Assembly (NCBI GenBank): GCA_900542255.1
Contig: UQMR01000010.1
Coordinates: 1-46,065 of the forward strand
Source: an uncultured Porphyromonadaceae bacterium
GTDB taxonomy: Bacteria; Bacteroidota; Bacteroidia; Bacteroidales; Barnesiellaceae_A
Length of the DNA: 46,065 bases
Direction: 5' to 3'
The position numbers were made by a program, and so were the translations under genes. Of the stretch, positions 972 through 14,310 are shown in pieces. Below the pieces are notes generated by a model, which was not told the DNA's origin, searched no databases, and saw only the letters and a list, made by a program, of their open reading frames with translations. Position 1 is the first letter of the stretch, and each line of letters opens with the position of its first letter.

Positions 972-3530
972 TTATCCGCAACGCGATGTGCCGCAGTTGG
1001 TGCAAATAAGACATCCTTCCTGATATACAAGAGTCTCCTGCTTGCAATTGGGGCAGGTAAGCCCGCCGGCCTTAGTGCCGTTGGGAAGGTACTTTTTCAA
1101 CGCGCGCTCTACACCATTTTTCCATGTATTGATAGACTGGTTGTCGAGGTCGAGACCCGAAACGAGCTTTATCACTTGGTCGATGGGCATTCCATAGCGC
1201 AACACTCCCGAAATGAGCTTGGCATAGTTCCAATATTCGGGATTGAACTTATCGGAGAGTCCCTCGATGGTTGTCTTGTAACCACGCTTATTGACGAACT
1301 GGAAGTCGTACCGCTTGTTTCCATCGGGGTCTACCGCCTTGATAATCTTACCTTTTGTTACGTTTTTGGGGCAGAATATACCATCATCGTCATCGGCAAG
1401 ACCGGTGAATATCTCATACGGACGGCCATTGAGCAACCCGACGAAGGCTATCCACTTCTCTTTGTTATTCTGGAAGCGTACGACATCGGCTTCGAGCTCG
1501 ATAGGACGCTTGTGCACGATAAGCGGCTGGGCTATGGTATCGCCGGCAGCCAATTTGCGCTTCTCTTTCTCCTCTTTCTCCTTATTTACCGAGATGAGAA
1601 CCCCCGAGCGGGAGCCTTCGCGATAAACGGTACAGCCCTTACAACCCGAGCGCCATGCTTCGACATAGAGGTCGTTTACGAGGTCTTCGGTAACATCCGA
1701 GGGGAGGTTGATAGTGACGCTGATGGAGTGGTCGACCCATTTCTGTACCCGCCCTTGCATGCGCACCTTTTTCAACCAATCGATGTCGTTTGAGGTTGCC
1801 TTGTAATAGGGCGACTTTGCCACAAGCGCATCTATCTCCTCCTGAGTATAGTTATTCTTCACCTCATATCCGTTTATCTGCATCCACGTAAGGAATTTGT
1901 GGTGATAAACGATATACTCTTCAAAAGCATCGCCGTTTTCGTCCCAATAGTCGGGATGCACATCGGGGTCGTTGGGATTCACCTTGCGACGGCGTTTGTA
2001 AACAGGCATAAACACAGGCTCGATACCCGACGTGGTTTGCGTCATAAGGCTGGTCGTTCCCGTAGGCGCTATGGTAAGACAGGCTATGTTGCGACGGCCG
2101 TATTGCACCATAAGGTCATACAATTCGGGGTCGGCCTCTTTGAGGCGATTGATAAACGGATTGTTCATTTCACGGGCAGCATCGTATATCTCGAAAGCGC
2201 CGCGCTCATGAGCCAGCTCTACCGACGAACGGTAGGCCGCCAAGGCGAGAGAGCGATGCACTTGCACCGACATATCGGTCGCCTCGTCTGTTCCATAACG
2301 CAAGCCCAAAGCAGCGAGCATATCGCCCTCGGCCGTCGTACCTACTCCCGTACGACGCCCTTGAAGGGTACGTTTCTGTATTTTGCGCCAAAGATTCAGC
2401 TCGGTATTTTTCACCTCGCTGGTCTCGGGGTCTGATATAATCTTGTCGATAATTTTCTCGATTTTTTCCATTTCGAGGTCGATAATATCGTCCATGATGC
2501 GCTGTGCTTTCGTAACATGGTCGCGGAAAAGGTCGAAATCGAAAACAGCCTCAGACGTAAACGGATTCTTTACATACGAATAGAGGTTGATGGCCAACAG
2601 ACGGCAACTGTCGTAAGGACAAAGCGGAATTTCGCCGCAAGGATTGGTAGAAACGGTCTTGAAGCCTAAATCGGCATAGCAATCGGGCACCGACTCGCGG
2701 ATAATAGTATCCCAGAAGAGGACACCGGGCTCGGCCGACTTCCATGCGTTGTGCACAATCTTACGCCATATATCGCGGGCACTCACCTCTTTCTCTACCA
2801 TAGGATGCTCGGCATCGATGGGATATTGCTGCACGTAAGGTATGTTATCGACGGCAGCTTTCATGAAATTATCATCGATTTTGACCGAAACATTGGCGCC
2901 GGTAATCTTACCCTCGGTCAGCTTGGCATCGATAAATGCCTCGGAATCGGGGTGCTTGATAGAGACGGTGAGCATAAGAGCTCCGCGACGGCCGTCTTGC
3001 GCCACCTCGCGCGTCGAGTTGGAGAAGCGCTCCATAAAGGGCACCAATCCTGTCGAGGTCAGGGCCGAGTTTTTGACGGGGGAGCCTTTGGGGCGGATAT
3101 GCGAGAGGTCGTGCCCTACTCCACCGCGACGCTTCATAAGCTGCACTTGCTCCTCGTCGATTTTAATGATACCACCATAAGAATCGGGCTCTCCTTCGAG
3201 ACCAACCACGAAACAGTTGGAGAGCGAACCAATCTGAAAATCGTTGCCAATACCCGTCATAGGGCTGCCTTGGGGCACAATATAGCGGAAATGAGCCATC
3301 AGGTCGAAAAGCTCCTGCGCCGAAAGGGGGTTGGAATACTTCTGCTCTATGCGAGCCAGCTCGTTTGCCAAGCGCCAGTGCATATCGTCAGGTGTTTTTT
3401 CATAGATATGTCCATAGGAATCTTTCAGAGCATATTTATTCACCCATACACGAGCAGCCAGTTCGTCTCCTCCAAAATAACGGAGCGAAGCGGCAAACGC
3501 CTCATCATAAGTGTAGGTTTCTCGTTCCAC
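972..3530 (-). CDS. nrdJ: Adenosylcobalamin-dependent (class II) ribonucleotide reductase
   Basis: Makes deoxyribonucleotides from ribonucleotides using a cobalamin-generated thiyl radical, without needing oxygen; cytosolic. With the GTG start at 3530 the protein is 852 aa. SNCFVVG carries the first redox Cys (C106), and NPCGEIPL carries the radical Cys (C298) and catalytic Glu (E300). The loop APTGTTSLM is present later. The C-terminus is a zinc-ribbon-like tail with CPNC, CLICTNC and a final Cys pair, typical of long class II enzymes. An in-frame ATG 16 codons upstream would add a hydrophobic stretch absent from the family. Family proteins begin at xERxTYTYDEA-like sequence, so GTG is preferred. 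It appears to be transcribed alone. Confidence 0.95.
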   Translation of the reverse strand: MERETYTYDEAFAASLRYFGGDELAARVWVNKYALKDSYGHIYEKTPDDMHWRLANELARIEQKYSNPLSAQELFDLMAHFRYIVPQGSPMTGIGNDFQIGSLSNCFVVGLEGEPDSYGGIIKIDEEQVQLMKRRGGVGHDLSHIRPKGSPVKNSALTSTGLVPFMERFSNSTREVAQDGRRGALMLTVSIKHPDSEAFIDAKLTEGKITGANVSVKIDDNFMKAAVDNIPYVQQYPIDAEHPMVEKEVSARDIWRKIVHNAWKSAEPGVLFWDTIIRESVPDCYADLGFKTVSTNPCGEIPLCPYDSCRLLAINLYSYVKNPFTSEAVFDFDLFRDHVTKAQRIMDDIIDLEMEKIEKIIDKIISDPETSEVKNTELNLWRKIQKRTLQGRRTGVGTTAEGDMLAALGLRYGTDEATDMSVQVHRSLALAAYRSSVELAHERGAFEIYDAAREMNNPFINRLKEADPELYDLMVQYGRRNIACLTIAPTGTTSLMTQTTSGIEPVFMPVYKRRRKVNPNDPDVHPDYWDENGDAFEEYIVYHHKFLTWMQINGYEVKNNYTQEEIDALVAKSPYYKATSNDIDWLKKVRMQGRVQKWVDHSISVTINLPSDVTEDLVNDLYVEAWRSGCKGCTVYREGSRSGVLISVNKEKEEKEKRKLAAGDTIAQPLIVHKRPIELEADVVRFQNNKEKWIAFVGLLNGRPYEIFTGLADDDDGIFCPKNVTKGKIIKAVDPDGNKRYDFQFVNKRGYKTTIEGLSDKFNPEYWNYAKLISGVLRYGMPIDQVIKLVSGLDLDNQSINTWKNGVERALKKYLPNGTKAGGLTCPNCKQETLVYQEGCLICTNCGTSRCG

Positions 3531-3600
3531 GACAAAAATTTTATAAAGTATTAATAACGAAATAGATAAAGACAACACGAAAATTGTCCGAAAAGCGATG

Positions 3601-4053: not shown

Positions 4054-4085
4054 TTGGTAAATGTGAGATGAATATGCTACTTTTG
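4054..4085 (+). promoter_or_regulatory. Promoter of the Fe-S/TonB operon
   Basis: TTG (4054-4056), a 21-nt spacer and TACTTTTG (4078-4085) match the Bacteroidetes consensus. Transcription should start near 4092. This lies downstream of the in-frame ATG at 4068, so that ATG cannot be the start, and ATG 4152 is supported. Confidence 0.65.
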
Positions 4086-4151
4086 CAGAAGGAGAGAGCC
4101 TCCCCCCAAAGGAGGTACTATACATTAACAACTACACAATCATTCAACAGC

Positions 4152-5696
4152 ATGTTACGGAAAATAAGAATTATCGCCGCCCTGATTTTCTTCCTTTTCA
4201 TTACACTGTTGTTCCTCGATTTTACGGGGACGATACACCATTGGTTCGGGTGGATGGCCAAGGTACAGTTCCTGCCCGCCGTCTTGTCGCTCAATGTAGG
4301 TATTGTAGCACTGCTCATAGTATTGACACTGATATTCGGCCGTGTATACTGCTCGGTTATTTGCCCCTTGGGCGTATTTCAGGACATCGCTGCACACTTC
4401 GGCAAGTTGCAGCGCAAGAACCGCTACACCTACTCACCGGCCAAAAGCTGGCTTCGCTACGGAATGCTCGCTCTTTTTGTGATTGCCCTTGTTGCCGGCA
4501 TAGGCTCTTTGGCAGCCCTTCTCGCGCCATACAGCGCATACGGCCGCATCGCCAGCAATCTCTTTGCCCCGCTATACCAATGGGGCAATAACCTGCTCGC
4601 ATACTTTGCCGAACGCGCCGACAGCTATGCATTCTATGCCACCGACGTATGGATAAAGAGCACCGCCACATTTGCCATAGCCGCAATCACGGCCATCATC
4701 ATTGTCATATTGGCATGGCGCAACGGCCGCACCTATTGCAACACCATCTGCCCGGTGGGAACCGTACTGGGCTTTCTCTCTCGTTTTGCATGGCTGAAAC
4801 CGGTCATCAACACCCAAAAATGTGTCAACTGCGGATTGTGTGCCCGCAATTGCAAAGCTGCCTGTATCGACGCGAAAAATCACCGGATAGATTACAGCCG
4901 CTGCGTAAGCTGCATGGATTGCATAGAGGCTTGCCACACAAAAGCCATCAGTTATGCACATGTCCAATCCCAAAAACAGACCGAGAAGCAGGCACAGCCT
5001 GCCGACCGCCTGCAAGTAACCGATACACAGGTAGACAATGCCCGCAGGAGTTTTCTTGCGACCACAGCCCTGCTTGCCACAACCGCCGCCATAAAAGCAC
5101 AAGAAAAGAAAGTAGATGGCGGCCTTGCCATCATAGAAGAGAAGAAACCGCCTCGCCGCAAGCAAGCCATTGTGCCGCCGGGTGCCATAGGCGAACAGCA
5201 TTTTACTCAACATTGCACAGCCTGCCAACTCTGCGTATCGGTATGCCCCAATGGCGTACTGCGCCCATCGACCGACCTGACGAAGCTGATGCAACCCGAA
5301 ATGTCGTATGAACGCGGATATTGCCGTCCGGAGTGTACCAAATGCTCCGAAGTATGTCCGACCGGCGCCATCCTGCCTATAACCCGGGCAGAAAAGTCGG
5401 CTACACAGATTGGCCATGCCGTATGGATAAAAGCCAATTGCATACCTCTGACCGATGGCGTAGAGTGCGGCAACTGCGCCCGCCACTGTCCCACAGGCGC
5501 CATACAGATGGTCCCGTTCCACGGACGGCACCGTTACCGGGGCGGAAACGGGAGCGACCAACAAGAGAAGAGCATCATGGTGCCTGCCATCAATACAGAG
5601 CGTTGCATTGGTTGCGGCGCGTGTGAAAACTTATGCCCCGCACGCCCATTCAGCGCCATATATGTAGAAGGGACTGAGTTACACCGAGAACTATAA
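4152..5696 (+). CDS. Membrane polyferredoxin, NapH-NapG-like fusion
   Basis: The 514-aa protein has two halves. Residues 1-265 resemble NapH/NosR-type quinol-oxidising proteins: four membrane segments (about 5-25, 45-65, 103-125, 172-190), two CPxG loops (ICPLG at 70-74, ICPVG at 199-203) and two 4Fe-4S motifs (C224-C234 and C251-C261). Residues 297-316 form a twin-arginine-like hydrophobic segment (ARRSFLATTALLATTAA). Residues 340-514 then resemble NapG, with four more Cys clusters starting near 355, 391, 430 and 485. NapG and NapH are usually separate proteins that pass electrons from menaquinol to the periplasm. I infer the same role here. The stop is 6 nt before the next ATG, so it is co-expressed with the reductase. 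The substrate is unknown. Confidence 0.8.
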   Translation: MLRKIRIIAALIFFLFITLLFLDFTGTIHHWFGWMAKVQFLPAVLSLNVGIVALLIVLTLIFGRVYCSVICPLGVFQDIAAHFGKLQRKNRYTYSPAKSWLRYGMLALFVIALVAGIGSLAALLAPYSAYGRIASNLFAPLYQWGNNLLAYFAERADSYAFYATDVWIKSTATFAIAAITAIIIVILAWRNGRTYCNTICPVGTVLGFLSRFAWLKPVINTQKCVNCGLCARNCKAACIDAKNHRIDYSRCVSCMDCIEACHTKAISYAHVQSQKQTEKQAQPADRLQVTDTQVDNARRSFLATTALLATTAAIKAQEKKVDGGLAIIEEKKPPRRKQAIVPPGAIGEQHFTQHCTACQLCVSVCPNGVLRPSTDLTKLMQPEMSYERGYCRPECTKCSEVCPTGAILPITRAEKSATQIGHAVWIKANCIPLTDGVECGNCARHCPTGAIQMVPFHGRHRYRGGNGSDQQEKSIMVPAINTERCIGCGACENLCPARPFSAIYVEGTELHREL

Positions 5697-5702
5697 AAGA
5701 TT

Positions 5703-7091
5703 ATGGATAAAATACATAAAAAAGAGATAACCCGACGCGATTTCCTGAAAAGATTGGGTATCGCGGGAGTTGCCACAACCGGACTTGCTGCATGTACCGG
5801 CAACGGCTCGGTGCAAGATGCCGGAAGCGAAGGCGAACCGACCGGTAAAATGACCTACCGTACCAACCCCACAACACAAGACCGCGTATCGTTGCTCGGA
5901 TTTGGAATGATGCGTTTACCCTCTGCCAAAGGGAGTGACGCACACGAAGTCATAGACCAAGAAATGGTAAACAGAATGGTAGACTATGCCATTGCCCACG
6001 GAGTAAACTACTTCGACACGTCGCCGGCCTACTGCCAAGGCTTCTCGGAACGTGCCACAGGCATAGCGTTGAGCCGGTATCCGCGCGAGAGTTATTACAT
6101 TGCCACAAAACTCTCCAACTTCTCGCCCTCGACATGGAGCCGCGAAGCATCGATAGCCATGTACCACAACTCCATGAAAGAGTTACAGGTAGATTATATC
6201 GACTACCTGCTGTTGCACGGTATAGGCATGGGAGGCATGGAAGAGTTTGAAAACCGCTATATACGCAACGGAGTCTTGGAATTCTTACTGGAAGAACGCA
6301 AGGCAGGACGCATACGCAACCTCGGATTCTCGTACCATGGCGACGTAGCCGTATTCGACTATTTGCTGTCGCGACATGACTATTACAAGTGGGATTTCGT
6401 ACAAATACAACTCAACTATTTAGATTGGAAATATGCCAAACAAATAAACCCCCGCAATACCGATGCCGAGTACCTGTATGCCGAGCTTGCCAAACGCAAC
6501 ATCCCGGCTGTCATCATGGAACCCCTGTTGGGCGGCCGCCTCTCTAATGTACCCGAGAATATCATAGCTCGGCTCAAAGAGAGAGAACCCGAGCAGAGCA
6601 TCGCTTCGTGGGCATTCCGTTTTGCCGGCAGCTTTCCCGACATTCTCACCGTGCTGAGCGGTATGACGCGCATGGAACATCTCGAAGACAACCTGCGCAC
6701 CTACTCTCCCTTGCAACCGCTTACCGACGAGGAGTTCAGCTTCCTGCAAAGCATCGCCACACAGATGATGGAGTTCGACACGATACCCTGCAACGACTGC
6801 AAGTATTGTATGCCCTGCCCCTACGGAATAGACATACCGGCCATACTGCTGCACTACAACAAATGCCTCAACGAAGGCCATATCGTCACCTCGCCGCAAG
6901 CCTCCGACTACCGACAAGCCCGTCGCGCCTATCTGGTAGGCTACGACCGCAGCGTACCCAAGCTACGGCAGGCCAACCATTGCATCGGATGCGGCCAATG
7001 CGTCGCACACTGTCCGCAACGCATAGATATTCCCAAAGAACTGCATCGCATAGACCGATATGTAGAACAACTAAAACAAAACACTTTATGA
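5703..7091 (+). CDS. Tat-lipoprotein aldo/keto reductase with ferredoxin domain
   Basis: The 462-aa protein begins with a near-perfect twin-arginine signal (TRRDFLKRLGIAG, residues 10-22), then a lipobox LAAC with C31. This predicts a folded, lipid-anchored protein outside the cytoplasm. Residues 57-345 are an aldo/keto reductase barrel keeping the catalytic tetrad D105, Y110, K136 and H172. Residues 363-437 hold two Cys clusters (CNDCKYCMPCP and CIGCGQCVAHCP), typical of ferredoxin-containing members. The substrate is unknown. NADPH is normally absent from the periplasm, so electrons from the upstream polyferredoxin are an attractive alternative, but this is inference. It overlaps the next gene by 4 nt (ATGA). 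Confidence 0.88.
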   Translation: MDKIHKKEITRRDFLKRLGIAGVATTGLAACTGNGSVQDAGSEGEPTGKMTYRTNPTTQDRVSLLGFGMMRLPSAKGSDAHEVIDQEMVNRMVDYAIAHGVNYFDTSPAYCQGFSERATGIALSRYPRESYYIATKLSNFSPSTWSREASIAMYHNSMKELQVDYIDYLLLHGIGMGGMEEFENRYIRNGVLEFLLEERKAGRIRNLGFSYHGDVAVFDYLLSRHDYYKWDFVQIQLNYLDWKYAKQINPRNTDAEYLYAELAKRNIPAVIMEPLLGGRLSNVPENIIARLKEREPEQSIASWAFRFAGSFPDILTVLSGMTRMEHLEDNLRTYSPLQPLTDEEFSFLQSIATQMMEFDTIPCNDCKYCMPCPYGIDIPAILLHYNKCLNEGHIVTSPQASDYRQARRAYLVGYDRSVPKLRQANHCIGCGQCVAHCPQRIDIPKELHRIDRYVEQLKQNTL

Positions 7092-9430
7092 CCGAAATAG
7101 AAGAGGCGGCAACGCTGCTGCGCTCGGGCGGTTACTCGTGTGTCGTGAAAAAAGGAGATGTCACGCACACCTTTACACGTCGGGGTGTTGCCGATTTATA
7201 TACATTTTACCAAGAAACCCCCGAACTCCTTGCCGGAGCCTGCATTGCCGACAAGGTTGTAGGAAAGGCCTCGGCGGCCATTAAGGCGATAGGTGGCGTA
7301 AAAGAGGTTTACGCCGATGTGATAAGCACCGAAGCGCTGTCGCTGCTGCGACAAAAAGGCATTGCCGTCAGCTACGACAAAGAGACCCCTTATATAGAGA
7401 ACCGCGACAAGACCGGGTTGTGCCCGATGGAGACGGCATGCAAACAGCAACACACCCCGCAAGAGATATACAACAGCGTGAAGGCGTTCATTGCAAAACT
7501 GAAACAGCCCAAGAATGCTGCCACAGCCCTTATCGCCTGTATGGTGGGAATATCGCCGTTGCAAAGCCACGCACAGCACGACAGCACTCGCCCCATACCG
7601 GGCGACACCATCAAAGAGATTGTCGTAACCGGAACGCGCAACGCCACCGACACACGCAACCTGCCTACGACCGTATCGGTCATCGACCGACAGACCATAG
7701 AGCAATCGATGCAACCCTCGCTCCTGCCTATTCTCACCACGCAGGTGCCGGGACTCTTCACCACATCACGCGGTATTATGGGATATGGCGTCTCGGGCGG
7801 AGCGGCAGGAAGCATCTCGTTGCGCGGACTGAGCGGCAGCTCGGGGCAGCTGATGGTACTCATAGACGGACACCCGCAATACATGGGACTGATGGGACAC
7901 CCTATTGCCGATGCCTACCAAACGATGCTGGCCGAAAAGGTGGAAGTGGCCCGGGGGCCGGCCTCGATGCTTTACGGGTCGAATGCCATGGGAGGTGTTA
8001 TCAACATCGTAACCCGGCGCATGCAGGAAGAGGGGGTAAAGACCCACATCCACGCAGGATACGGCTCTTTCAACACGTTGGAGACCGAAGCCACCAACCG
8101 GGTGCGCAAAGGGGGCTTCACGAGCGTGGCAAGCGTATCGTATAACCGTACCGACGGGCACAGACCCGATATGAACTTCGAGCAATACGGCGGATATGTC
8201 AAATTGGGGTACGAATTTTCTCCCTATTGGAAAGCCCGTGCCGATGCCAATGTGACACACTTCAACGCATCGCAACCGGGTAGTACCACAACCCCTCTCG
8301 CCGATGCCGACCAACGCATCACGCGGGGCATGACATCGGTAAGCGTAGAGAACAATTACGACTGGACGTCGGGAGCAATAAGCCTCTTTTACAATTGGGG
8401 CGACCATCGGATTAACGACGGATACACGCCCAACCCCAACGACACGAACAACCCCAAAGAATATCGTTTTATCTCGCACGACGATATGATGGGGGTATCG
8501 GTATACCAAAGCGCCCAACTCTTTACCGGCAACAGGCTTACCGTAGGAATCGATTATTTCCATTTCGGAGGTTCGGCACTGAATCGCTACGTCAGCGGCG
8601 ACCGCACCGGGCAAGACGAGCCCATCGTAGAGATTGCGCAAGACGAGATAGCCGGATATGTCGATTTCAGGCAAGACATAACCCGCTGGGTCACCGTTGA
8701 TGCCGGCGTACGTATAGACCACCACAGCCAAACCGGTACCGAATGGATACCGCAGGCCGGCATTTCGCTGCACCTGCCCTACGACATAGAGATGAAAGCC
8801 TTGGCGAGCAAAGGGTTCCGCAATCCTACCATCCGGGAAATGTATATGTTCCCGCCTCAGAATCCCGACCTGCAACCCGAAAGCATGTGGAACTACGAAA
8901 TCGCTCTCTCGCAACAGCTCCTGGGCGGACGGCTCTCATATGGCGTAAACATCTTTTACATCGACGGCAAGAACCTCATCATGACCCTACCCAACCCCAA
9001 CGGCAGCGGTATGCTCAACCAAAACTCGGGGAAAATAGATAATACCGGTGTAGAGGTAGAGGGAAATTTCCGCATAGACAACCGATGGGCGGTAAATGCC
9101 AATTACAGCTTCCTGCACATGGAGAACCCCGTACTTGCGGCTCCCGAACACAAGCTGTACGCGGGCTGCAACTTCACCCATGAGCGTTGGAGTGTCTCGA
9201 CAGGCTTGCAGTATGTCGCAGGGCTGTACACTGCCGTAAAAACCAACGGTACAGGAGAAGAGACAAAAGAGAATTTCCTCTTGTGGAATCTGCAAGGGGC
9301 ATTTCGCGCCACAAAATGGTTGGAGATATGGGTGAGGGGCGAAAATCTGCTGGCACAACAGTATGAAATTATCGCCGGATATCCCATGCCGCGCGCCACA
9401 TTCATGGGCGGTGTCAACATCAACTTCTAA
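7088..9430 (+). CDS. DUF1893 domain fused to TonB-dependent receptor
   Basis: A single open frame of 780 aa starts in an ATGA overlap with the reductase. Residues 1-138 match DUF1893 (cytidine-deaminase-like fold), including ADKVVGKASA at 54-63 and TGLCPMETAC at 109-118. Residues 136-162 look like a signal peptide (lysines, short hydrophobic core, QSHA then Gln). KEIVVTGTR (176-184) opens the receptor plug, with GPASMLYGSNAMGGVINI-type plug sequence later and a beta-barrel ending in Phe at the C-terminus. The DUF1893 part would stay in the cytoplasm while the receptor is exported. An internal GTG at 7478-7480 would start the receptor with a normal signal peptide. No stop codon separates the parts in this sequence. 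The ligand is unknown. Confidence 0.85.
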   Translation: MTEIEEAATLLRSGGYSCVVKKGDVTHTFTRRGVADLYTFYQETPELLAGACIADKVVGKASAAIKAIGGVKEVYADVISTEALSLLRQKGIAVSYDKETPYIENRDKTGLCPMETACKQQHTPQEIYNSVKAFIAKLKQPKNAATALIACMVGISPLQSHAQHDSTRPIPGDTIKEIVVTGTRNATDTRNLPTTVSVIDRQTIEQSMQPSLLPILTTQVPGLFTTSRGIMGYGVSGGAAGSISLRGLSGSSGQLMVLIDGHPQYMGLMGHPIADAYQTMLAEKVEVARGPASMLYGSNAMGGVINIVTRRMQEEGVKTHIHAGYGSFNTLETEATNRVRKGGFTSVASVSYNRTDGHRPDMNFEQYGGYVKLGYEFSPYWKARADANVTHFNASQPGSTTTPLADADQRITRGMTSVSVENNYDWTSGAISLFYNWGDHRINDGYTPNPNDTNNPKEYRFISHDDMMGVSVYQSAQLFTGNRLTVGIDYFHFGGSALNRYVSGDRTGQDEPIVEIAQDEIAGYVDFRQDITRWVTVDAGVRIDHHSQTGTEWIPQAGISLHLPYDIEMKALASKGFRNPTIREMYMFPPQNPDLQPESMWNYEIALSQQLLGGRLSYGVNIFYIDGKNLIMTLPNPNGSGMLNQNSGKIDNTGVEVEGNFRIDNRWAVNANYSFLHMENPVLAAPEHKLYAGCNFTHERWSVSTGLQYVAGLYTAVKTNGTGEETKENFLLWNLQGAFRATKWLEIWVRGENLLAQQYEIIAGYPMPRATFMGGVNINF
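7478..7480 (+). promoter_or_regulatory. Possible internal GTG start of the receptor
   Basis: GTG at codon 131 of the fused frame would begin a protein with sequence (M)KAFIAKLKQPKN, a hydrophobic core and QSHA|Q, a good signal peptide. If used, the receptor would be 650 aa and made separately from the fusion. There is no clear ribosome site, but such sites are weak in this phylum. Confidence 0.35.
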
Positions 9431-10644: not shown

Positions 10645-11826
10645 TTACACCCACTTGACAATCAAATCGCCACGCTTCCCGGTACCATATATAGGCAATC
10701 CGAGACCCGGCAATACCGTCGAATCGGCACCTAAGATGGGTTCGACAATCTGCACGGTACCATCTAACAGGGGCACCTGCACGGGCGTCCCACAAGCCTT
10801 ACATTTGTCGGAGAGGTGTATTTTATATATTAGATTATATCCGTCGCGCTGAAAAGTAGGGTGTTCCGATATATTCTCTATAATGATATATAAGTCGCCG
10901 GTTTCCGAACCTATCATGTTTCCCCTTCCTTTAATAACAAGTTCCTGACCATTCAATAACCCGGCAGGTATATCGAACGAAACAGTATCTTCCTCGCTGA
11001 TATAACCTTCTCCATCGCACAAGGGACAAAAATCGACGTTAAGAACACCTTGCCCTTTGCAGTCGGGACAATTTTTTTTGACAGGATGAGGATATACCGT
11101 AACGTTGCCGAATATTGTCGAACGGGTTTCGCCCAATCCTTGCTCTTCCCATATAAAACCTTTTCCACCACAGGTAGAACATGGAATCGATATCATACCT
11201 TCTGAGGAACCTTTGCCGTTACATCGATGACAAGTCTTTTTCCTTTTATAACGAATCGTTTTTTTCACGCCGTTAGCCACATCTTCCAAGGTTAGGTTTA
11301 TTTTCATTCTCAGATGAAGCGGTATTTTATGTTCAGACGCTGATTTCTTGGCACTGCCTTCTTGAAATGAACCGAATAAACTCTTACCATTGAACTGCTC
11401 ATTAAATATAGATAAAATATCATCCATGGAAAAACCTTGGTCGCTATTTCCCGAAGCATTTTCTTGACGAGACGATTGTCCGGTATTTTCATTACTCGAC
11501 GGACGGAAAGTCTTCTGGCTGTTATCGGTAGGACGTATTGTTCTCTGCGAATCTGCCTCTTCAGAACTCGTCACAGTCCTTTGACTGCCACCGGTAGGAC
11601 GTATTGTTCTCTGCGAATCTGCCTCTTCAGAACTCGTCACAGTCCTTTGACTGCCACCGGTAGGACGTATTGTTCTCTGCGAATCTGCCTCTTCAGAACT
11701 CGTCACAGTCCTTTGACTGCCACCGGTAGGACGTATCGTTTTCTGCGAGTCTGCCACGCCATCATACTCCTCATCATCCATAGAGGGCTTTATGGTCTTA
11801 CTGCCTTCATTCATATCGTATGCCAT
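10645..11826 (-). CDS. DnaJ-like zinc-finger protein lacking a J domain, with TIRP repeats
   Basis: 393 aa. Residues 1-26 are acidic and include GSKTIKP. Residues 27-114 are four 22-aa repeats with core SQRTIRPTGG-SQRTVTSSEEAD; the fourth is divergent. Residues about 165-290 carry a DnaJ-type substrate domain with four CxxCxGxG motifs (CHRCNGKG, CSTCGGKG, CPDCKGQG, CPLCDGEG). The rest is the DnaJ C-terminal domain. There is no HPD-bearing J domain, so it should not stimulate DnaK in the usual way. It may hold clients, or act through the Thr-rich repeats, whose regular T-I-R-P sites look like phosphorylation or FHA-docking sites (inference). First gene of the operon with DUF2007 and NYN genes. 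Confidence 0.85.
   Translation of the reverse strand: MAYDMNEGSKTIKPSMDDEEYDGVADSQKTIRPTGGSQRTVTSSEEADSQRTIRPTGGSQRTVTSSEEADSQRTIRPTGGSQRTVTSSEEADSQRTIRPTDNSQKTFRPSSNENTGQSSRQENASGNSDQGFSMDDILSIFNEQFNGKSLFGSFQEGSAKKSASEHKIPLHLRMKINLTLEDVANGVKKTIRYKRKKTCHRCNGKGSSEGMISIPCSTCGGKGFIWEEQGLGETRSTIFGNVTVYPHPVKKNCPDCKGQGVLNVDFCPLCDGEGYISEEDTVSFDIPAGLLNGQELVIKGRGNMIGSETGDLYIIIENISEHPTFQRDGYNLIYKIHLSDKCKACGTPVQVPLLDGTVQIVEPILGADSTVLPGLGLPIYGTGKRGDLIVKWV
11485..11748 (-). repeat. 66-bp tandem repeat, 4 units
   Basis: Four in-frame 66-bp units encode the 22-aa TIRP repeats of the DnaJ-like protein. The central units are identical or almost so at the DNA level, which suggests recent expansion. The unit is divisible by three, so changes in copy number would keep the frame. 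Confidence 0.85.
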
Positions 11827-13131: not shown

Positions 13132-14310
13132 TCAGTGCCCCAAGATACGTTTTTTATCTTCGGCCGTAGGTTTCACTTCGGGCAGCTCTGCCAGAGCCTT
13201 TATCTTCTCCTTGGCATCGCGACTCAACTTCTCGGGGATGAAAATAGTAACCCTCACAATGAGCGAGCCTATACCGGGACTGCTGATAGAGGGAAGACCT
13301 TTACCCCGCAGCGCATAGATTCTACCGGGTTGTGTGCCGGCGTCTATCTTTATCCGTGCACGGCCGTCGAGTGTAGGTATCTCTATCTTATCGCCCAAAA
13401 CGGCCGTAGGATAATCTATCATGAGGTTATATATAAGGTCCTTGCCTTGACGCTCAAAGTCGGGGTGTTTCTCCTCCTTTATCACTACCAGCAAATCGCC
13501 GTTCACGCCGCCATGGCGCGGAGCGTTTCCTTTGCCCTCGACCGACATCTGCATCCCTTCGGAGACACCGGCAGGGATATTGACGGCAACGACCTCTTCG
13601 CCCCGTACGACGCCCTCGCCGTTACAGTAGGAGCATTTGCTGGTGATGCGTCGGCCTTCGCCATGACAATCGGGGCACTCGACAATCATACGGCTTGTCC
13701 CGAAGACCATGCGTTGCACTTGCGTCACATGGCCCGAACCGTTACAGGTAGGACAGGTGGTATATGCCGTGCCGTCTTTGGCGCCGGTTCCTTTGCAATG
13801 CTCACAAGGTATATATTTGGTGAGTTTCAGCTTTTTCTCTACGCCGGTGGCTATTTCGTTGAGCGACAGCTTGACGGTAACACGCAGGTCTCCGCCGCGA
13901 TTGACGCGTTGGCCGCCCCGTCGGTTATTGCCGTACATCCCGAATATATCGCCAAAGCCGCCTCCGAACGAGCCGCCTCCGAACGAGCCGCCTCCGAATA
14001 TATCTCCGCCAAAGAGGTCGCTCAGGTGCGACAATATATCGTCCATCGAAGCGCTGTATGAGCCACCGCCGGCTGCACCGCCCATCCCTGCATGACCGAA
14101 ACGGTCGTAACGGGCACGCTTATCGGGGTTGCTCAGCACATCGTATGCTTCTGCTGCCTCCTTGAATTTCTCTTCCGCCTCTTTATCGCCGGGATTTTTG
14201 TCGGGATGATATTGAATAGCTTTCTTGCGGTATGCTTTCTTTATCTCCTCGGCAGTAGCATTCTTTTCAACACCTAAAACTTCGTAATAATCTCTTTTTG
14301 TATCTGCCAT
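13132..14310 (-). CDS. dnaJ: Chaperone protein DnaJ
   Basis: Hsp40 co-chaperone that delivers unfolded proteins to DnaK and stimulates its ATPase; cytosolic. The 392-aa protein has the full type-I layout: J domain with YHPDKNPGD near residue 33, a Gly/Phe-rich linker with GGGSFGGG repeats (about 80-125), and a zinc domain with four CxxCxGxG motifs ([32 protein letters not shown]). The C-terminal substrate domain contains [18 protein letters not shown]. It starts 22 nt after the grpE stop, so the two form an operon. The window holds a second, J-less relative at 10645-11826. Confidence 0.98.

What the first reader, a model, noticed from the sequence alone, without database searches (positions are those of the whole stretch)
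7088..9430. DUF1893 fused in frame to a TonB-dependent receptor across an internal signal peptide
One uninterrupted frame carries a complete DUF1893 domain (1-138), a signal-peptide-like stretch (136-162) and a whole outer-membrane receptor. A cytosolic domain in front of a signal peptide is a strange design. After cleavage at QSHA|Q the DUF1893 part would stay tethered to the inner membrane. Alternatively an internal GTG at 7478 makes the receptor alone. Either way it suggests that DUF1893 and the receptor work on the same compound.
Basis: partly seen in the sequence, partly recalled or inferred. Interest (0 to 1): 0.85.

Follow-up and report, generated by a model that had tools for sequence, protein, structure and literature searches.

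The report
Cytosolic domain fused ahead of receptor
In this gut bacterium and a number of relatives, an outer-membrane uptake protein is encoded as one chain with a cytosolic domain of unknown function placed in front of its export signal, so the cell probably makes both from one chain and lets its signal peptidase cut them apart.

Summary
The join is real. Window 7088-9430 is one open frame of 780 codons: DUF1893, a cleavable-looking signal peptide, a whole TonB-dependent receptor. It is no base error: 73 further protein clusters carry it, including isolate genomes of Bacteroides, Butyricimonas and Breznakibacter. Other relatives, some of one genus, have two separate genes. Without a stop, DUF1893 can only be made joined to the receptor. 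No receptor start codon is conserved: 35 of 74 fused proteins lack Met in the 25 residues before the hydrophobic core, and 4 of 15 fused DNAs have no ATG/GTG/TTG in the 20 codons before it. Best reading: a two-product polyprotein split by signal peptidase I, leaving DUF1893 on the cytosolic side (cleavage inferred). DUF1893's steadier partners are a Tat-signal aldo/keto reductase and a NapG/H-like ferredoxin, often with an ECF-S-like protein downstream; a receptor follows directly in 22 of 80 loci from a scan that favours fused forms. A shared compound is not shown.

The parts
7088..9430 (+). fused open frame, DUF1893 - signal peptide - TonB-dependent receptor, 780 aa
   Evidence: same join in 73 further protein clusters
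7088..7495 (+). DUF1893 (TM1506-like) domain, residues 1-136; Pfam match 7-135
   Evidence: sequence match to PDB 1vk9 and 9e9a; blocks of residues 1-140 modelled with mean pLDDT 75-96
7457..7516 (+). junction: last DUF1893 helix (model helix 124-138) runs straight into the basic n-region of the signal peptide
   Evidence: dN/dS of the junction 0.14, 0.09, 0.25 and no replacement in four close pairs
7478..7480 (+).
   Evidence: I 57, V 17 of 74
7517..7552 (+). hydrophobic core of the internal signal peptide
7571..7576 (+). predicted signal peptidase I cut between Ala162 and Gln163 (SHA|Q)
   Evidence: motif counts; Q-rule paper PMC5837995 (abstract, passages and one section seen); cleavage itself not tested
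7652..7999 (+). TonB plug domain
8153..9349 (+). TonB-dependent receptor beta-barrel
5703..7091 (+). aldo/keto reductase with 4Fe-4S domain and Tat-type signal; its stop codon overlaps the DUF1893 start by 4 nt (ATGA)
4068..5696 (+). membrane polyferredoxin, NapH/NapG-like; taken as first gene of the operon
   Evidence: NapG/NapH models match below their cut-offs

Best explanation
A genuine gene fusion that behaves as a two-product polyprotein. Ribosomes that start at 7088 must make DUF1893 and receptor in one chain (shown by the absence of a stop codon). DUF1893 folds in the cytosol; its last helix leads directly into the receptor's signal peptide, which enters the Sec channel N-in; signal peptidase I cuts at the A-x-A|Q-like site; the receptor goes on to the outer membrane and DUF1893 stays on the cytosolic face of the inner membrane, held by the leftover signal peptide or set free when that is degraded (these steps inferred). 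Because the cut separates the two products, loss of the stop between these closely spaced operon genes is tolerable, which would explain why lineages switch between fused and separate. DUF1893 more likely serves the reductase operon than the receptor as such (inferred).
For: Join in 73 further clusters. DUF1893 and receptor under purifying selection in four close fused pairs (dN/dS 0.09-0.16 for the DUF1893 core, 0.02-0.18 for the receptor). No conserved receptor start: the column where P0013 has Met just before the core is Met in 10 of 74; 35 of 74 have no Met in the 25 residues before the core. In 15 fused DNAs: well-placed ATG 5, GTG/TTG only 6, none 4 (14, L162; W and L031 are near-identical). 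Against this, 17 of 18 separate adjacent receptors have an ATG start (read by eye, so not by the same script); Fisher p = 0.0006 for 5 of 14 against 17 of 18 (rows not independent by descent). In genus g208 L113 has ATG where L034/L112 has ATA. Signal peptide kept: n-region charge at least +1 in 71 of 74; strict [AVSG]xA[QDE] in 37 of 74 against 7.9 in shuffles. Model: two modules with a low-confidence stretch 140-175.
Against: No protein-level data: cleavage and location are inferred. 37 of 74 lack the strict cut-site motif, A.A alone is weak (21 against 12.2 in shuffles), and Gln after the cut is found by my pattern in 35 of 74 (47%), below the 71% mean of PMC5837995. 11 of 15 fused DNAs keep some possible internal start, 5 of them ATG. 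Starts other than ATG/GTG/TTG were not considered. Junction dN/dS is 0.25 in one close pair; in two wide pairs pN/pS at the junction is about 0.5 with synonymous sites near saturation, and L034-L113 is also high in synonymous change. DUF1893 is also found fused to the C-end of the Tat-signal reductase, which would carry it to the periplasm; this conflicts with a purely cytosolic role unless it is also made alone there.
Confidence: 0.7

Rival explanations
1. Two overlapping start sites: the long frame makes DUF1893-receptor at low level, and an internal start (GTG 7478 in the window, ATG in some relatives) makes most of the receptor.
For: 11 of 15 fused DNAs have an in-frame ATG/GTG/TTG within 20 codons of the core with net positive charge; B. 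fragilis L032 and L033 keep ATG AAG AAA just before the core.
Against: 4 of 15 have none; the column of the B. fragilis Met is Met in only 10 of 74; the GTG column is Ile/Val in all 74, so Val there needs no start-codon reason. Separate receptors have ATG in 17 of 18.
Confidence: 0.22
2. Functionally neutral fusion: stop loss between adjacent genes with no benefit, tolerated because signal peptidase undoes it. Same processing as the best explanation, but no shared task (not exclusive with it).
For: Fused and separate states are interleaved on the receptor tree (11 changes among 94 tips; 500 shuffles mean 14.2, minimum 11; 9 changes among 92 tips without L035 and P0026); one genus holds both.
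Against: Some clades stay fused (20 of 20 tips in one) although a stop could arise at many codons. Sampling favours fused forms (79 fused, 15 separate tips) and some tips are the same gene seen twice, so this is weak.
Confidence: 0.35
3. Sequencing or assembly error that removed a stop codon.
For: Separate relatives exist; one close relative of the B. fragilis form, L035, is frame-broken just after the signal peptide, so errors or decay do occur here.
Against: Same join in independent assemblies, among them a B. fragilis record titled complete genome and Butyricimonas and Breznakibacter isolate genomes.
Confidence: 0.01
4. Uncut fusion: DUF1893 stays covalently joined to the receptor.
For: No cleavage has been measured; 37 of 74 lack the strict motif.
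Against: An outer-membrane barrel cannot leave the inner membrane with a cytosolic domain attached (general knowledge); basic n-region in 71 of 74 and cut-site motifs above shuffles.
Confidence: 0.04

Closest known systems
FbcH cytochrome b/c1 polyprotein of Bradyrhizobium (recalled; one search found no held paper, the 6 titles listed and the 6 are not about it; the 1989 gene-cluster paper was seen only as a reference in passages of PMC6256036)
   Same: Two proteins encoded as one chain with an internal signal peptide that signal peptidase cuts (recalled).
   Different: There both products are membrane proteins of one complex; here one is a soluble-fold domain and the other an outer-membrane barrel, and fused and separate states alternate within an order.
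DUF1893 / TM1506 family (PF08973; PDB 1vk9, 9e9a)
   Same: Near full-length profile match, sequence similarity to both solved chains.
   Different: The solved chains are 151 and 150 residues long; here the domain's C-end runs on into a signal peptide. A review (PMC8946771: abstract, passages and one section seen) says the T. maritima prototype auto-ADP-ribosylates; not tested here.
TonB-dependent receptors, nearest solved relative BtuB
   Same: Plug and barrel; best sequence and fold hits are E. coli BtuB.
   Different: 135.6 bits against the BtuB equivalog cut-off of 599.7; 18% identity in the best fold match, with other receptors scoring close behind; substrate unknown. No signal peptide at the chain's N-end.

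Membership tests
DUF1893/TM1506 (PF08973) | Profile match over the curated cut-off, near full length | tested here: met
   160.3 bits against 27, profile 2-130 of 130
DUF1893/TM1506 (PF08973) | Auto-ADP-ribosylation reported for the prototype | not testable with these tools
   only a review passage seen
TonB-dependent receptor | Plug and beta-barrel domains | tested here: met
   PF07715 and PF00593 over cut-off; receptor folds matched; strands not counted, TonB box not tested
TonB-dependent vitamin B12 receptor (TIGR01779) | Score over the equivalog cut-off | tested here: not met
   135.6 bits against 599.7
Signal peptidase I substrate of Bacteroidetes | Basic n-region, hydrophobic core, A-x-A-like site followed by Gln | tested here: met
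   SHA|Q in the window; across fused proteins 37 of 74 strict and 35 of 74 with Gln, against 7.9 and 10.8 in shuffles; Q-rule in PMC5837995
Signal-peptidase-processed polyprotein (FbcH type) | No stop between two products and an internal cleavable-looking signal peptide | tested here: met
Signal-peptidase-processed polyprotein (FbcH type) | Two separate products found in cells | not testable with these tools
   needs proteomics
Tat enzyme maturation chaperone (for the novel case) | Binds the Tat signal or the apo-enzyme in the cytosol | not testable with these tools
   only gene neighbourhood

The most novel reading that the evidence does not exclude
DUF1893 is a cytosolic maturation or cofactor-loading factor for the Tat-exported, 4Fe-4S aldo/keto reductase of its operon, and in fused lineages the leftover signal peptide of the receptor is used as its membrane anchor. 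Every receptor molecule exported would then leave one anchored DUF1893 behind, coupling receptor output to reductase export: a cut signal peptide with a working domain on its inner end.
Probability: 0.13. Interest if true: 0.85.

Novelty: new variant of a known kind. Interest (0 to 1): 0.6.

Why it matters
Outer-membrane receptors are expected to carry their signal peptide at the very start. A recurrent class with a complete cytosolic domain in front suggests that bacteria can use signal peptidase as the splitter of a polyprotein, and it makes the fate of leftover signal peptides testable in ordinary isolates. It also ties the unexplained DUF1893 family to a defined neighbourhood in Bacteroidales (ferredoxin, Tat-signal reductase, ECF-S-like protein, in some genomes TatA/TatC).

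Tried and rejected
Base error: rejected. GTG 7478 as conserved start: rejected as conserved, not excluded for the window alone. Riboswitch or other known RNA: no Rfam family reached its cut-off in the window. B12 receptor: equivalog cut-off not met, although a ribonucleotide reductase lies divergently upstream. ECF-S-like gene elsewhere in the nearest genome: no match in G001 or three congeners with a protein query from another family (no positive control in that call). Papers: no held paper has the word DUF1893; TM1506 occurs in one; searches for precedent or operon gave no paper or listings in which I saw no title on this join (all 6, 8 of 13, 6 of 20,004, 6 of 430). The deaminase-fold paper cited by the review is not held. 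Direction of change (fusion or fission) cannot be told: equal costs give 9 with a fused root and 11 with a separate root, unequal costs can reverse it, and the sample favours fused forms.

Rows dropped: the tree left out P0012 and P0046 among fused proteins and used 46 of the 47 receptors P0075-P0121; these 46 and two non-adjacent receptors (L058, L067) were pruned before counting changes; several L tips repeat P tips. The structure alignment A2 holds 61 of the 74 fused proteins. L162 was missed by the script and done. L054 has a weak receptor hit after DUF1893 that the table hid; one search shows it to be a 56-residue piece of a receptor's end, so it is not counted as a pair. L144 repeats L037 and is counted once. 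In one search, 31 of 67 reductase-DUF1893 gaps could not be placed by my rule. The lipobox rule caught 22 of 66 reductases while the looser RRxF rule caught 64 of 66. Gene layout rests on blastp against window or L034 proteins, on the + strand only; absence of a gene there is not proof of absence. A second ECF-S-like protein (L049) matched no Pfam family and none of three matched NCBIfam.
Full report
The frame. Window 7088-9430 (+) is open from ATG to TAA, 780 codons. Pfam finds DUF1893 at 7-135, the TonB plug at 189-304 and the barrel at 356-754, all over cut-off. Between them lie the end of the last DUF1893 helix, a basic stretch, a hydrophobic core and SHA|Q. AlphaFold2 on 61 of the 74 fused proteins models DUF1893 well, with a helix 124-138 ending at the basic stretch, a low-confidence segment 140-175, and a barrel; parts of the plug (233-276) are also low. 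The model's best PDB fold matches are BtuB-like, with other TonB receptors close behind.

The join elsewhere. A protein search with residues 1-300 listed 120 of 7976 homologues; 73 (P0002-P0074) carry PF08973 and PF07715 in one chain. P0002 is 99% identical over the searched part and stands for 106 sequences. In these a receptor follows DUF1893 within 500 bases in 22: same frame without stop in 7 (L031, L032, L033, L034, L036, L044, L090), frame-broken in 1 (L035), separate genes in 14. Named carriers of the join include Bacteroides fragilis, Butyricimonas synergistica and Breznakibacter xylanolyticus.

How common. In the nearest genome's family, one genus, 1 of 9 genomes has it and the other 8 have no match. 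It is a minority but recurrent state.

Natural comparison. In 7 of the 14 separate pairs the receptor can begin at an ATG that overlaps the DUF1893 stop by 4 nt; in the others it begins within some tens of bases, and all three relative frames occur. One genus (g208, taken as Butyricimonas because L112 and L034 share the junction DNA) has two genomes fused (G405, G407) and three with stop codon and new ATG in the same frame (G403, G404, G406). On a receptor tree, fused and separate forms are interleaved: 11 changes among 94 tips, equal to the minimum of 500 label shuffles (mean 14.2), or 9 among 92 without the frame-broken L035 and the odd P0026. The state is thus partly inherited and has switched several times; direction is not resolved.

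Is the receptor also started internally? Without a stop, DUF1893 can only be made as part of the fusion, so the fusion is made wherever DUF1893 is made. Whether extra receptor is made from inside was tested by start codons. In the column where P0013 has Met just before the core, 10 of 74 fused proteins have Met, and 35 of 74 have no Met in the 25 residues before the core. In 15 fused DNAs, 5 have an ATG within 20 codons of the core with net positive charge, 6 only GTG or TTG, 4 none (L036, L090, L200; L162). W and L031 are near-identical and both counted. In 18 separate adjacent receptors read by eye have an ATG and one (L145) only TTG. Fisher's test with 5 of 14 against 17 of 18 gives p = 0.0006. 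Rows are not independent by descent. The window's GTG 7478 sits in a column that is Ile in 57 and Val in 17 of 74.

Selection. In four close pairs the DUF1893 core has dN/dS of 0.09-0.16, the junction 0.14, 0.09, 0.25 and no replacement, the receptor 0.02-0.18; in two wide pairs pN/pS at the junction is about 0.5 and synonymous sites are near saturation. The strict cut-site motif is in 37 of 74 against 7.9 in shuffles, a small residue followed by Gln in 35 against 10.8, A.A in 21 against 12.2. Gln after the cut fits the Bacteroidetes Q-rule, though 35 of 74 (47%) is below the mean of 71% over species given in PMC5837995 (abstract, passages and one section seen).

Neighbourhood. The gene order ferredoxin - reductase - DUF1893 holds in 57 of 80 loci (40 without and 17 with a receptor after it). 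The reductase has a loose RRxF Tat motif in 64 of 66 and residues like the aldo/keto tetrad in 64-67 of 67 (the tetrad is recalled). Of 72 loci with at least 4 kb downstream, an ECF-S-like protein follows in 40, including 17 of the 19 with an adjacent receptor; TatA in 13, TatC in 9, DUF362 in 4. The ECF-S label is weak: 26.1 bits against a cut-off of 30.7 in one protein and none in another. TatC is in 16 of 16 genomes tested, in several a few kb from DUF1893 on the same contig and strand. In the window's nearest genome no ECF-S-like protein was found and tatC is on another contig. In five loci (L016, L019, L020, L021, L147) DUF1893 is fused to the C-end of the reductase, each with a Met near the DUF1893 start. 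In L054 only the end of a receptor remains after DUF1893.

Mechanism. Shown: one frame, no stop, a kept signal peptide, no conserved internal start, recurrent switching. Inferred: N-in insertion, signal peptidase I cut, DUF1893 left inside. This needs nothing beyond known Sec and signal peptidase chemistry, and a cytosolic domain before a signal-anchor-like helix is ordinary for type II membrane proteins (general knowledge). Unusual here is that the rest is an outer-membrane barrel. What DUF1893 does is open. Its steadier partners point to the Tat-signal reductase; a review says the family's prototype auto-ADP-ribosylates (PMC8946771, passage), which would fit a role with NAD-type cofactors, but nothing here tests it. 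The reductase fusions would place DUF1893 in the periplasm unless it is also made alone from the retained Met; this conflict is unresolved.

Verdict. Observation confirmed; interpretation partly supported; new variant of a known kind (signal-peptidase-split polyprotein, the known case recalled); interest 0.6.

Noticed in passing
L016, L019, L020, L021, L147: DUF1893 fused in frame to the C-end of the Tat-signal aldo/keto reductase, the opposite join to the window's; these five keep a Met near the DUF1893 start.
   Followed up: partly
L034 8298-10784; L044 8285-9797: ECF-S-like protein, TatA and TatC directly downstream of the DUF1893-receptor gene, and DUF362 in L034: Tat export genes inside the operon of a likely Tat substrate.
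   Followed up: partly
L054 6422-6589: Between DUF1893 and the ECF-S-like gene only the last 56 residues of a receptor remain, as if the receptor gene had been deleted.
   Followed up: partly
L035 6321-6522: Close relative of the B. fragilis form whose frame breaks just after the signal peptide; from a metagenome assembly, so error or decay.
   Followed up: no
L090, between signal peptide and plug: Insert of about 60 residues rich in Ala and Pro between the cut site and the plug.
   Followed up: no
P0026: Front half like the B. fragilis fused form, barrel grouping with separate receptors (L041, L057): recombinant or chimeric assembly.
   Followed up: no
L145: Separate receptor whose signal peptide frame has only TTG and no ATG after the DUF1893 stop.
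   Followed up: no
window 10645-11826 (-), beside 13132-14310 (-): A protein that looks by eye like DnaJ without an evident J domain and begins with three to four near-identical repeats (SQRTIRPTGGSQRTVTSSEEAD-like), next to a DnaJ-like gene; seen in the ORF list only, no family search run.
   Followed up: no
window 972-3578 (-): Ribonucleotide reductase large chain, divergent from the operon.
   Followed up: no
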